From assembly GCF_033845285.1 (NCBI RefSeq), contig NZ_JAWXCX010000001.1, forward strand, positions 325,495 through 389,494: DNA of 64,000 nucleotides, written 5' to 3'. This document shows positions 10,181 to 49,768 of this stretch, piece after piece. Made by a program: the position numbers and the translations under genes. The stretch comes from Marinococcus sp. PL1-022 (lineage in GTDB: Bacteria; Bacillota; Bacilli; Bacillales; Marinococcaceae). Every line of letters begins with the position of its first letter. Positions within the stretch are counted from its first letter, which is position 1. Below the pieces are notes generated by a model. That model had not been told where the DNA came from. It did not search any database and was given only the letters and a program-made list of their open reading frames with translations.

Positions 10181-11068
10181 ATGAAAGTACGTAAAGCTAT
10201 TATTCCGGCCGCAGGGCTTGGAACGCGTTTTCTGCCGGCGACAAAGGCACAGCCGAAGGAAATGCTTCCGATTGTGGATAAACCCACTATTCAATACATA
10301 GTAGAAGAAGCGATTGCTGCCGGCATTGAAGACATTATCATTGTAAGCGGGCGCGGCAAGCGTGCAATTGAGGATCATTTCGATGTTTCGTATGAGCTCG
10401 AACAGACGCTCGAAAAGAAAAACAAAACGAAGCAGCTTGAGGAAGTCCAGCAGATTTCCAATATGGCAAATATCCACTACATCCGCCAGAAGGAGCCAAA
10501 GGGTCTTGGACACGCCATCTGGTGTGCCCACCGTTTTATCGGGGACGAGCCGTTTGCTGTTCTGCTTGGTGACGATATTGTGCATTCGGACGAGCCGTGC
10601 ATGAAGCAGCTCACAGACGTCTTTGATAAGTACCAGAGCTCGGTGGTCGGTGTCCAGCAGGTGCCGGATCAGGACGTTTCCAAGTACGGCATCATTGATC
10701 CGAAAAGCGAAGAAGAACCGGGCGTTCATAAAGTCCAGGGCTTAAAGGAAAAGCCGGATCTTGCGGATGCGCCGTCCAACTACGCAGTGATGGGTCGCTA
10801 CGTTCTGACACCGGAAATCTTCGACATTCTCGAAACGCTGCCACCAGGCTCGGGCAATGAGATTCAGCTGACGGATGCGATTACGAAGCTGAATGAAAGC
10901 CAGGACGTGCTGGCGTATGAATTTGACGGCGTGCGTTACGATGTCGGCGATAAATTCGGCTTTGTCAAAGCGACAATCGATTTCGCGCTCGACCGGGAGG
11001 ATCTGCGCGGTCCGCTTGAGGATTACCTGCAGAACAATATTCTGCAAAAAGAAACGGATAAAAACTAG
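10181..11068 (+). CDS. galU: UTP-glucose-1-phosphate uridylyltransferase
   Basis: A 295-residue enzyme that makes UDP-glucose from UTP and glucose-1-phosphate for wall teichoic acid, glycolipid and exopolysaccharide synthesis. The nucleotide-binding motif [20 protein letters not shown] is at the N-terminus, followed by the conserved EPKGLGHAI and GDDIVHSD motifs and a C-terminal VGDKFGF. I chose the ATG at 10181 because AAGGAGG sits about 8 bases upstream; an upstream TTG at 10127 has no support. Together with the dehydrogenase at 14.4 kb it gives a route to UDP-glucuronate. A strong terminator follows. Confidence 0.96.
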
Positions 11069-11082
11069 ACATATCAGATGAA

Positions 11083-11116
11083 AAGGCCGCCGGGCACTGG
11101 TCCGGCGGCCTTTTTT
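11083..11116 (+). terminator. galU terminator
   Basis: AAGGCCGCCGG (11083-11093) and CCGGCGGCCTT (11102-11112) form a perfect 11-bp stem followed by a T run. Confidence 0.92.
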
Positions 11117-28110: not shown

Positions 28111-28460
28111 TTAAATGACTATTCATTCACTACATACAACTTATGCACTAATAAAAATACTAAAAAATATGTAAATGTATCTAAAAAATGAACAATAAGG
28201 AAAAATAATAGTTCTTTATTCATATTTATGATATAATTAATTTACGATAAGTGGAAAATGCCTAGGGTCATAGGGCTTCTTGTCGGAACCTGTGAAGAAA
28301 AGGTAGAATTTGTATACGGTCGTTCGAGTTCAGGGGATTGGTTGTCCTGCTGCAGTTTACAGAGAGAAATCAACAGACAAAAACGCAGAGGGCATGCTTG
28401 GGGAAAGTGTGTTCAACAAAAATAACATCACTTTCGGTGAGGTCTCAGGAGGAATACATA
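28111..28460. other. gene-free AT-rich stretch before the LuxR-type regulator gene
   Basis: The first 140 bases are AT-rich with no terminator hairpin after csrA that I can see. A TATAAT at 28232-28237 could be a -10 box, but the matching -35 is poor. The remaining 200 bases form an untranslated leader of unknown function; I recognise no riboswitch or tRNA in it. Confidence 0.4.
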
Positions 28461-29165
28461 ATGGCCAGGACTTACAGTCGTAACATCCCGGGAAGCAGGG
28501 TGCCGATTTTATTTATCGACCTGCAGGGCTCAGAAGTACTGCCGCAGGCAGCAGAATCAATGGGGAAGCTGGCTGTGCGCACGAATGGGGAAGAGTGGAC
28601 CACGCTTATGCAGCGCGGTCTGCAGAAGGACACGCTTTATTACACAGCGTGCAGTGATTTGGATGCGTTTGTGCGGCTTCAGGAAGCAAAACGGGTCGGC
28701 TCCGCCTGCAGGATTGGTGTGAACCTGCCGGAGCGTCTCAGGCACCTGGTGGATGAATTTATCTGCCAGGAGGTAACGATGCTTTTAGCCGCCGAGCGCG
28801 AAGAAGACGACTGGCGCAAGCATTTTATGCGTGCCACGCAGTTTCAAACGTACATCGACCCGGTGTTTCAACCGCAGGTCGTTGAACGGTACCGCCGCAT
28901 GAATCAGCTGCAGGAAGAACCCCCCGAACAGCAGCTCGAACTCGACGTGCATAAAGCACGCGGCACGCTGTCCGAAGCAGAAATCCGGATTTTGGAAAAA
29001 ATCCTCGAAGGCAAAAGCAACCGCAAAATTGCCGAAGAATGCTTTCTGGCCGTCGCCACCGTGAACAACCACGTCAGCCACCTGACGAAAAAGATGCAGG
29101 CCAACGACCGCACGCACACCATAAAGCGCGCGATCGAAGAAAACTGGGTCGAGTTTATCACGTGA
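28461..29165 (+). CDS. DegU-like LuxR/NarL-type regulator with pseudo-receiver N-terminus
   Basis: A 234-residue protein. The C-terminus is a clear LuxR-type helix-turn-helix (LSEAEIRILEKILEGKSNRK, then VATVNNHVSHLTKKMQANDR) and resembles DegU through NDRTHTIKRAIEENWV. The linker segment QTYIDPVFQPQVVERYRRM also parallels the DegU linker. The N-terminal ~120 residues can be laid along a receiver fold (ILFIDLQG for strand 1), but the acidic pair and phosphoacceptor aspartate are not found. It is therefore likely controlled by something other than phosphorylation. The ATG at 28461 follows AGGAGGAA. It sits between csrA and comK/hag, suggesting a role in motility or competence. Confidence 0.75.
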   Translation: MARTYSRNIPGSRVPILFIDLQGSEVLPQAAESMGKLAVRTNGEEWTTLMQRGLQKDTLYYTACSDLDAFVRLQEAKRVGSACRIGVNLPERLRHLVDEFICQEVTMLLAAEREEDDWRKHFMRATQFQTYIDPVFQPQVVERYRRMNQLQEEPPEQQLELDVHKARGTLSEAEIRILEKILEGKSNRKIAEECFLAVATVNNHVSHLTKKMQANDRTHTIKRAIEENWVEFIT

Positions 29166-29473
29166 TCGAAAGGCGTAGGTCCGCCGCTCAGGAGCCTCGT
29201 ACGGCTGGCCACGCCCTGCTTGGACTTGTTGTCAAACAAGGCAGGCAGGGCAAGGTCAACGGAACGAGCGACTGCGGACCGAAGCTGGACAGCTAGAAAA
29301 GCGAAGAGCGTTTGTTTACCACCCGGGACGGCTCGCGGCTTTCGGTCGGCTTGAGACGAAGTCGCAAACGATCCGAAACAGCGAATGGACCCGGGTGGTA
29401 ACGCTCGGAGCTGGACAACGAAAACTTGCCGTTCGAGTCTATGTTAAATAACCCGAGGGTTCGAGCGGCAAAA
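29166..29473 (+). repeat. modular structured repeat element, copy A
   Basis: Starts at the stop codon of the LuxR-type gene. Positions 29177-29219 (AGGTCCGCCGCTCAGGAGCC...) and 29244-29310 (GGCAGGG...AGCTGGACAGCTAGAAAAGC) match copy B at 48.4-48.9 kb read on the minus strand, with a different hairpin (CTTGTT/AACAAG) between them. It continues with TTACCACCCGGG/CCCGGGTGGTAA (29316-29327 and 29390-29401), another AGCTGGACA-ACGAAAA unit, and TTGCCGTTCGA/TTCGAGCGGCAA (from 29426 to 29470). The repeats are plainly visible; the function is unknown. Confidence 0.85.
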
Positions 29474-48372: not shown

Positions 48373-48419
48373 ACAGCCCGGCTTTTCCTATTTTATAAGG
48401 AGAAGCCGGGCTGCTTTTG
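48373..48419 (+). terminator. terminator of the SRAP gene
   Basis: AGCCCGGCTTTTCC (48375-48388) and GGAGAAGCCGGGCT (48399-48412) form a 14-bp stem with one mismatch, followed by TTTT. Confidence 0.88.
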
Positions 48420-48420
48420 T

Positions 48421-48865
48421 ATGGGCTCTGCGAAGCAGATCAGTTCGATGGTGTCACGATAGTGACGTCTTTCATCGAACTTCCTTTTTTTACCGAACGC
48501 TCTCCGCTTTTCCTGGTGTCCAGCTTCGCCACCCAGCCGTCCAGTCCATTGGCTGCATCCTGACTTCACCGTCTTACGACGCTTCCAGCCAGGATTACGC
48601 CAGCCGTCTGAGGCCTGCGGAGCAGGTCAGTTCGGTGGTGAAATGTAACTTTCACCACCGAACTTCCTTAAAGCAGGGTGGCTCCGCTTTTCCTAATGTC
48701 CAGCTTCGGTCCGCAGTCGCTCGTTCCGTTGACCCTGCCCTGCCTTAGGCCCACATGATGTGGGTCAGTTCGACGTTGCCACAGGACGTGGCGAGGTTAG
48801 TCGAACTTCCTTCGCAGGGCGTGGTCAGCCGTACGAGACTCCTGAACAGCGGACCTCCGCTTTTC
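48421..48865 (-). repeat. modular structured repeat element, copy B (three hairpin units)
   Basis: Read on the minus strand it starts with GAAAAGCGGAGGTCCG directly after the rpiR-type stop codon. Three units each carry AAGGAAGTTCG-[stem]-CGAACTGA; their hairpins are at 48768-48806 (GTTCGAC/GTCGAAC, inner GCCAC/GTGGC), 48630-48663 (GTTCGGTGGTGAAA with TTTCACCACCGAAC, perfect 14 bp) and 48443-48480 (GTTCGATG/CATCGAAC, inner GTCAC/GTGAC). A further stem CCCACA-TGA-TGTGGG lies at 48750-48764. The linkers share AGCTGGACA...AGGAAAAGCGGAG. Parts are near-identical to copy A at 29.2 kb. No coding gene is visible. Confidence 0.88.
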
Positions 48866-49720
48866 TTATAGCTTTTTCCGGGCGACGGCTTTGCGTATTT
48901 TGGCCACGGCTTCCTGGGCCTGGTCTTTCTTTTTGATGCAGTAATTTACATACAGGCCGTCGAGGAGCGAAAGCTCGGCTAGTCTGGAGGCGAGCGCTTC
49001 GGAGCGGTATTCGGTTTCGCGCGAAATAGTTTGCAGCGTCAGGTCGGCCTTTTGGCTGATGGGCGTTTTGGCGTAGCTTGTGATTGCGATAATGCGGGCC
49101 CCCTGTTCTTTGGCTACATCCATCGCTTCGAGTACGTCTTCGTTGGCTCCGGAGTGTGAAATCACAATCGTGACGTCGTTTGGCTTTAGCTGGGACGCAG
49201 CCATCACCTGCCAGTGGGAATCGGTATAGGCATGGCTCGGAAGTCCGGTGCGCATAAATTTATGCTGGCCGTCCTGGGCAGTGACGCCGGAGCCGCCGCT
49301 TCCATAAAAATGAAGCTCTGACGCTTCAAGCAGGTACTGAACCGCCTGGCGGACCGTGCTTTCATCAAGCACCTCCTGGGTGTAGGTGAGTGCATTTTTA
49401 TTACTTTGAAATACCTTGGACATAACCTCTGCTTCGGTGTCGTTTTCCTGGATCGTTTCATGAATGTCTTCGATCGGTTCTATAATGTCGGAAGCGAGCG
49501 CGATTTTCATCGCCTGATAGCCCTTAAAGCCGAGCCGCTTACAGAAACGGAAGACGGTGGCGTCTGCCAGGGAAAGCTGGTCGGCTACCTGATTGATGGT
49601 CGAGTGGACGATGGTTTCGGGATTTTGCAGCATATAATCGGCAATTTGCTTTTCTTTGTCGCTAAAAGTGTTGTACAGCGACTGGATGCGCTGACGGACG
49701 TGAGTCGTTTCGGTAGCCAT
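48866..49720 (-). CDS. MurR/RpiR-family transcriptional regulator, likely of the gluconate operon
   Basis: A 284-residue regulator. The N-terminal HTH_6 domain has LYNTFSDKEKQIADYMLQNP and QVADQLSLADATVFRFCKRL; the C-terminal SIS domain (about residues 125-265) has LHFYGSGGSGVTAQD and VTIVISHSGANEDVLEAM, the phosphosugar site. The start at 49720 (MATETTHVRQ) is preferred because GGAGG is 7 bases away; the ATG at 49726 is too close to it. The gene is divergent from the gluconate genes, with a 21-bp palindrome between, and probably responds to a phosphorylated sugar acid. Confidence 0.9.
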   Translation of the reverse strand: MATETTHVRQRIQSLYNTFSDKEKQIADYMLQNPETIVHSTINQVADQLSLADATVFRFCKRLGFKGYQAMKIALASDIIEPIEDIHETIQENDTEAEVMSKVFQSNKNALTYTQEVLDESTVRQAVQYLLEASELHFYGSGGSGVTAQDGQHKFMRTGLPSHAYTDSHWQVMAASQLKPNDVTIVISHSGANEDVLEAMDVAKEQGARIIAITSYAKTPISQKADLTLQTISRETEYRSEALASRLAELSLLDGLYVNYCIKKKDQAQEAVAKIRKAVARKKL

Positions 49721-49768
49721 GAGCATTCCTCCGGTGAAAAAAGTCTTACCTTCATCATAAAGGAATAA

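What the first reader, a model, noticed from the sequence alone, without database searches (positions are those of the whole stretch)
48421..48865. Modular repeat with covarying hairpins placed directly after a stop codon (copy B)
Three units share flanks (AAGGAAGTTCG ... CGAACTGA) but their inner stems differ in sequence while staying complementary: GAC/GTC, GTGGTGAAA/TTTCACCAC and ATG/CAT. Such compensatory change points to selection on RNA structure. Read on the minus strand the element begins at the base after the stop codon of the RpiR-type gene. The linkers (AGCTGGACA...GGAAAAGCGGAG) recur. It recalls dispersed AAAAGCGGAG-containing repeats I associate with Bacillaceae genomes, but I cannot verify that.
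Basis: partly seen in the sequence, partly recalled or inferred. Interest (0 to 1): 0.75.

Follow-up and report, generated by a model that had tools for sequence, protein, structure and literature searches.

The report
Stop-codon-anchored hairpin repeat arrays
Right after the end of a regulator gene lies a head-to-tail array of RNA-like hairpin repeats, one case of a little-studied repeat family in Bacillus-type genomes whose arrays often start exactly at stop codons and, at this site, carry different modules in close relatives.

Summary
On the minus strand, 48866-48421 is a head-to-tail array of units AGAAAAGCGNA-P1...P1'-GNAGCUGGACA. The three AAGGAAGUUCG hairpins are modules nested in them; one is Rfam Bacillaceae-1 (RF01690, 75 bits). 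The outer unit matches no Rfam 15 family. A covariance model from other species finds it in the window, 16 times in this genome, and in 28 of 41 genomes searched (this one included; 0-87 copies). Stems covary (88% of cells paired, 60% shuffled) and one strand folds better. A co-directional stop codon abuts the 5' edge in 44 of 120 arrays. In 66 of 130 an apparently 3'-truncated unit follows the last full one; 5'-truncated ones occur in 4. In three congeners the array behind the same RpiR gene starts at the same stop codon and ends before the same terminator, but carries different units. Best reading: a proliferating, modular interspersed structured repeat, working like BOX or ERIC, read as 3' UTR where it follows a gene. 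Its mobility enzyme is unknown; copies follow neither Y1 transposases nor reverse transcriptases. Against a purely RNA role: arrays lie in both orientations. No expression data were available.

The parts
48697..48866 (-). Unit 1 of the array: outer stem GGTCCGC/GCGGACC, with a Bacillaceae-1 module in its apical part
   Evidence: R1 52.2 bits, E 9e-13; fold z -5.07; 7 of 7 pairs
48750..48816 (-). Bacillaceae-1 RNA (RF01690) nested in unit 1
   Evidence: 75.1 bits, gathering score 35
48517..48693 (-). Unit 2: outer stem GCCACCC/GGGTGGC
   Evidence: R1 30.9 bits, E 1e-6; fold z -7.67; 7 of 7 pairs
48613..48669 (-). AAGGAA double-hairpin module nested in unit 2 (like Bacillaceae-1 in layout, no Rfam match)
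   Evidence: Sequence; no Rfam match at E up to 1; G001 has this unit without the module; edges judged by eye
48421..48513 (-). Unit 3: 5' part of a unit (AGCGTT type) with an AAGGAA module at 48486-48424; 3' part missing
   Evidence: No R1 match; full sister units of this type at 29295-29417 and in L005 and G002; fold z -1.97
48374..48413 (.). Terminator hairpin between the array and the convergent SRAP gene, T-rich on both sides (by eye)
   Evidence: 16 pairs, listed on + strand only; the hairpin is kept in G001-G003
48866..49726 (-). RpiR-type regulator gene directly upstream of the array
   Evidence: ORF; Pfam HTH_6, SIS
29167..29291 (+). Copy A, unit 1 (GGTCCGC type, no Bacillaceae-1 inside), directly behind the stop of a LuxR-type gene
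   Evidence: R1 45.4 bits; fold z -4.83; ORF 28338-29165, Pfam GerE
29295..29417 (+). Copy A, unit 2 (AGCGTT type)
   Evidence: R1 50.6 bits; fold z -6.01

Best explanation
The element is a local array of a proliferating, modular, interspersed structured repeat of Bacillales. Shown: each full unit is a long interrupted hairpin with fixed ends (AGC/GCU closing pairs, a symmetrical GNA/GNA loop, then arms that change together). Units stand head to tail a few nt apart, accept nested modules (among them Bacillaceae-1), differ between close relatives at one and the same site, and have a sharp 5' edge, often at a stop codon, and a mostly incomplete 3' edge. Inferred: where the array follows a gene it is read as the 3' UTR up to that gene's terminator; folding of this strand keeps the insertion harmless or useful there, for example by blocking 3'-5' exonucleases. 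New units are added from the fixed 5' end by copying or insertion, and homologous recombination shuffles units between arrays. The enzyme that spreads it is unknown.
For: Covariation; model hits in the untrained window and 16 in the genome; 28 of 41 genomes with 0-87 copies, congeners with 1 and 59 or 0 and 82; different units at one orthologous site in four species; nested module beside an intact sister unit; stop-codon abutment; edge asymmetry; strand asymmetry.
Against: No expression data. Among the 56 of 129 arrays with clean context, tandem genes hold 9 sense and 16 antisense arrays, so a general 3'-UTR role is not shown. About half of the strand difference comes from base composition, and the G-T over A-C excess is small (31 to 15). 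No array-free site and no target duplication were demonstrated. Units are related by descent, so the statistics are not independent.
Confidence: 0.6

Rival explanations
1. DNA-level element: the unit is a single-stranded DNA hairpin or MITE-like substrate of a transposase acting in trans; stem complementarity reflects transposition or quasi-palindrome correction, not RNA function.
For: Arrays in both orientations; wobble pairs are few in the outer stem (43 G-T and 29 A-C of 994 positions); in G021 the 3' tail ends in TTTCTTAC, the complement of the GTAAGAAA seen at some 5' edges (by eye).
Against: One strand folds better beyond composition in 112 of 143 representatives; G-T exceeds A-C 31 to 15; copies do not follow Y1 transposases; G020, G036 and G037 have 82, 16 and 30 units and no Y1 match.
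Confidence: 0.25
2. Domesticated cis element: the arrays are kept because they stabilise mRNAs or terminate transcription (read from the other strand each unit is a hairpin followed by CTCCGCTTTTCT).
For: 5' edges at stop codons; arrays between stop codon and terminator at the RpiR locus in four species; a terminator-like site is predicted in the antisense reading at 48848-48861 (0.9 such sites expected in that scan, 3 found).
Against: Copy number from 0 to 87 and unit turnover at a fixed site do not look like a conserved function; neighbours differ from locus to locus (by eye).
Confidence: 0.2
3. A trans-acting small RNA (Bacillaceae-1 as filed in Rfam), or a CsrA-binding decoy on the reverse strand as PMC4333381 proposed.
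For: RF01690 is filed as an sRNA. [quoted passage not shown]
Against: RF01690 copies run to 90 per genome and none is found in 13 of 41 genomes. In arrays they lie on the strand of the outer unit in 17 of 17 cases in G033 and 8 of 12 elsewhere. They occur as nested insertions.
Confidence: 0.08

Closest known systems
Bacillaceae-1 RNA (Rfam RF01690; Weinberg et al. 2010, PMC2864571, table passage seen)
   Same: The module at 48816-48750 is a full-length member; dispersed in Bacillaceae
   Different: Outer units and the other two modules do not match it; arrays, nesting and stop-codon starts are not in the passages seen
BOX elements of Streptococcus pneumoniae (PMC3049150, passages)
   Same: Modular, structured, intergenic, found as co-transcribed extensions of operons, over-represented between convergent genes
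   Different: In BOX the middle module is multiplied between fixed ends; here whole units with both ends repeat. No sequence comparison was made
ERIC and other bacterial MITEs, bcr1 of the Bacillus cereus group (PMC3733652, PMC3049150, passages)
   Same: Short imperfect palindromes beside genes, transcribed, affecting mRNA
   Different: No terminal inverted repeats or target duplications shown here beyond 3-bp AGC/GCT ends; head-to-tail arrays with incomplete 3' units
REP elements with RAYT (Y1) transposases (GTAG/CGTC-tagged repeats, PMC3733652, abstract and passages)
   Same: Palindrome with a short tag (GNA) at its 5' foot
   Different: About 120 nt, not 20-40; copies do not follow Y1 genes
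Bhal-1 and Bant-1 stem-loop families (PMC2267715, passages)
   Same: Intergenic repeat families of B. halodurans (74 bp) and B. anthracis (72 bp)
   Different: Closer in length to Bacillaceae-1 than to the outer unit; sequences not in the passages, so overlap could not be tested

Membership tests
Bacillaceae-1 RNA (RF01690) | Covariance-model score of at least 35 bits | tested here: met
   Only for the module 48816-48750, 75.1 bits
Bacillaceae-1 RNA (RF01690) | The same score for the other two modules and the outer units | tested here: not met
   No match at E up to 1 in the window; none at the arrays of seven other loci
Outer-unit family (model R1, built here) | Match to a model trained on other species, with a paired outer stem | tested here: met
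   Four window units at 30.9-52.2 bits, each with 7 of 7 outer pairs; unit 3 does not match
REP/RAYT elements | Spread with a Y1 (RAYT) transposase | tested here: not met
   Spearman -0.06 over 41 genomes; G020, G036 and G037 have units and no Y1 match
MITE (including ERIC, bcr1) | Terminal inverted repeats and target-site duplication | tested here: inconclusive
   Flanks inspected by eye; only 3-bp complementary ends; no array-free site was compared
BOX elements | boxA and boxC ends enclosing a variable number of boxB modules | not tested
   No BOX sequence was compared; the layout differs, whole units repeat
Integron attC sites | GTT/AAC core sites and an integrase | not tested
   Considered because attC sites also follow stop codons (recalled); the unit ends show no such cores by eye; no integrase search
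IS remnant | Remains of a transposase gene | tested here: not met
   No ORF of 60 aa or more lies in 48421-48865; shorter or broken remnants were not searched

The most novel reading that the evidence does not exclude
The arrays are the product of an undescribed kind of mobile element: a structured element that is inserted at stop codons, always starts at the same 5' end, is copied head to tail from that end and breaks off within a unit. It needs neither a Y1 transposase nor a PF00078 reverse transcriptase, and it is a landing platform in which other structured modules (Bacillaceae-1) nest.
Probability: 0.2. Interest if true: 0.85.

Novelty: new variant of a known kind. Interest (0 to 1): 0.62.

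Why it matters
A covarying structured repeat with up to 87 copies per genome in Bacillales has no match in Rfam 15, and it gives Bacillaceae-1 RNA, an Rfam family without known function and with an uncertain strand, a context: nesting, arrays and a preferred strand. Starting at stop codons with a fixed 5' edge and a mostly incomplete 3' edge is an unusual signature, and it makes the open question of how short bacterial repeats spread testable by strain comparison. If sense arrays are transcribed, many mRNAs of these bacteria carry long, fast-changing structured 3' UTRs.

Tried and rejected
Plain IS remnant: not supported (no ORF of 60 aa or more; wide covariation). RAYT/Y1-driven REP: no dependency seen. 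Retrotransposition by a resident PF00078 protein: not supported; 9 of the 17 genomes with at least 10 units have no match. A housekeeping small RNA: not supported, because copies range from 0 to 87. The exact motif AGGAAAAGCGGAG found only the two window copies; the gapped linker and the covariance model found the rest. Ten paper searches listed nothing I recognised as the outer unit or such arrays; one search listed 20 of 210 papers, most subscription papers are not held, and Bhal-1 and Bant-1 could not be compared.

Weak points of method. The first strand test used units chosen by folding the favoured strand, so with a symmetric filter replaced it (143 of 147 representatives passed). Units of L091, L145, L124 and L109 and those weaker than -0.33 kcal/mol per nt were dropped before and the model. 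Of 55 non-redundant units of 104-125 nt the model's alignment used 47; I left out 8 by hand. One search gave clean gene context for 56 of 129 arrays, because simple ORFs overlap many arrays. In one search, 7 arrays at stretch ends were dropped; of the 66 trailing partial units, 59 match a unit of the same array over less than 60 nt (many only over the end motif, so some may be units of another type) and 5 over 100 nt or more, which may be complete with a changed 3' end.

Full report
What is there. Read on the minus strand, the finding is an array of head-to-tail hairpin units that begins at the last base of the TAA stop of an RpiR-type regulator (Pfam HTH_6 and SIS; ORF ends at 48866) and runs to a palindromic terminator at 48413-48374 shared with a convergent SRAP gene. 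Unit 1 (48866-48697) is AGAAAAGCGGA-GGTCCGC ... GCGGACC-GAAGCTGGACA; unit 2 (48693-48517) has the outer stem GCCACCC/GGGTGGC; both stems are perfect. Unit 3 (48513-48421) has only the 5' part. Units 1 and 2 fold better than all 200 shuffles (z -5.07 and -7.67); unit 3 with its module reaches z -1.97, and its complement -2.69. The module in unit 1 is a full-length Bacillaceae-1 RNA (75.1 bits); the other two modules match no Rfam family at E up to 1.

The outer unit is a family of its own. The linker AGCTGGACA-N(2-10)-AAAAGCG occurs 12 times in this genome and the pattern read backwards never. Hits in distant phyla are probably chance, but many Bacillaceae and Planococcaceae records and Pilibacter show arrays: 17 of the 120 loci have two to six linkers in a row, mostly 121-128 nt apart (24 of 30 spacings; the rest 151, 195 or 196; examples). 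From 47 units (55 non-redundant ones were available) I built covariance model R1. The window was not in the training set; R1 finds four of its units (52.2, 50.6, 45.4 and 30.9 bits), 16 units in this genome, and units in 28 of 41 genomes, this one included, with 0-87 copies (stricter filters). Congeners can differ strongly (1 and 59; 0 and 82). In 299 genomes drawn over the phylum it occurs in 4: this one, 2 of 3 others of the order, 1 of 7 of other orders of the class, and 0 of 288 others (stricter filters, 11 candidates scored per genome; 275 rows without match are not listed, and I take them to be of other classes as the listing is sorted). In seven array loci of other species no Rfam 15 family matches the arrays at E up to 1.

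Covariation. RNAalifold gives 32 pairs, 29 with double changes. On the alignment 88.1% of cells pair against 60.4% in shuffles, and the covariation score is 0.691 against 0.199; sliding the partners by 1-3 columns gives 34-49%. The structure came from this alignment, which favours it. To avoid bias from folding or alignment I also took the seven bases at fixed offsets inside the two end motifs: in 142 distinct arm pairs 791 of 994 positions are Watson-Crick against 377-412 in five re-pairings, and 97 stems have at least 6 of 7 pairs against 3-5. Between the closing AGC/GCT and this stem lies a GNA/GNA loop in 159 of 192 distinct cases; I recall such loops as tandem sheared G-A motifs.

Strand. 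The AGAAAAGCG...GCTRGACA strand folds better than its complement in 130 of 143 representatives (mean -6.0 kcal/mol). Shuffles show that composition accounts for -3.2; the excess is -2.8, in the same direction in 112 of 143. In the outer stem G-T mismatches outnumber A-C 31 to 15 in the 123 arm pairs with at least four Watson-Crick pairs (binomial p 0.026), and 43 to 29 in all 142. This favours a role of this strand as RNA or as single-stranded DNA, not decisively.

Edges. In 130 arrays from the 120 scan loci and the 60 fetched stretches, a partial unit follows the last full unit in 66, a unit of another type in 15 and none in 49; a 5'-truncated unit precedes the first in 4, a unit of another type in 6 and none in 120. 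Some of the 66 may be units of another type or have only a changed end. A co-directional stop codon closing an open frame of at least 70 codons ends within -6 to +3 nt of the 5' edge in 44 of 120 arrays: 45 such stops, against 8 in -50..-7, 9 in +4..+50, and 2 in the matching band at the 3' edge. The stop is often completed by the first bases of the unit, as in the window. The other arrays start mostly at A/T-rich positions, a few just outside promoter-like or ribosome-binding-like sequence of an opposed gene (by eye). Orientation is mixed: among the 56 of 129 arrays with clean context, 24 lie between convergent genes, 9 are sense and 16 antisense between tandem genes, and 7 lie between divergent genes.

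Turnover at a fixed site. In three congeners (RpiR 97-99% identical) the array starts at the same stop codon (TAA, in G003 TAG) and ends before the same terminator hairpin, but with other units. With a, b and c for the stems GGTCCGC, GCCACCC and AGCGTT: this genome has a with Bacillaceae-1, b with module, partial c with module; G001 has b, partial c with module; G002 has c, a without Bacillaceae-1, partial b with module; G003 has b, partial b with module. In this genome's L005 locus an intact c unit stands beside one with the AAGGAA module inserted. So modules behave as insertions, and arrays gain, lose or exchange units. In G033, Bacillaceae-1 copies lie between outer units and on their strand in 17 of 17 cases; in loci of G012, G017 and G021 in 8 of 12.

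What spreads it. Unit number does not correlate with Y1 transposases (Spearman -0.06) or PF00078 reverse transcriptases (-0.20) over 41 genomes; G020 has 82 units and no match to either. It correlates moderately with RF01690 copies (0.42). Other mobility genes were not searched. A fixed 5' and a mostly incomplete 3' edge suggest addition from the 5' end by copying, or by insertion in front of an existing end; this is inference.

Interpretation. [quoted passage not shown] It differs in repeating whole units, in its starts at stop codons and in its incomplete 3' ends. Behind an expressed gene the array would be the 3' UTR; whether it stabilises the message, is only tolerated, or matters as DNA cannot be settled without expression data. 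The CsrA proposal for Bacillaceae-1 concerns the opposite strand (PMC4333381, passages) and is not favoured by the shared orientation found here.

Limits. Genes near arrays are simple ORF calls. Units are related by descent, so no p-value is for independent data. Ten paper searches covered open-access papers only. Of the papers cited I saw passages, and for some the abstract in a listing; none was read whole.

Noticed in passing
L118 1476-1623, L059 7398-7542, L119 583-1031, L087 4271-4422: A second unit type of about 145-152 nt with the inner motif GAGATAAAGGAAACACG...CGATGTTGACTTATCG shares the outer ends and stands in the same arrays.
   Followed up: no
L269-L279 (G021), after the last unit: Nearly all G021 copies carry a 3' tail ending in TTTCTTAC, the complement of GTAAGAAA at some 5' edges, which looks like a MITE-type terminal repeat.
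   Followed up: partly
41 genomes: RF01690 (Bacillaceae-1) itself reaches 90 copies per genome and is not found in 13 of 41, like a mobile repeat more than a housekeeping RNA.
   Followed up: partly
L005 1340-1600 and window 48816-48750 against 29167-29291: AAGGAA modules are present in one unit and absent from its closest sister, so they look like insertions into the larger units.
   Followed up: partly
window 48848-48861, + strand: Read antisense, the end of unit 1 is a terminator-like hairpin with TTTCTT; units read antisense end in CTCCGCTTTTCT or similar.
   Followed up: no
window 11041-11114, + strand: Weak sub-threshold match to RF02901 (25.6 bits, gathering 97) that seems to rest on a strong terminator-like hairpin; probably chance.
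   Followed up: no
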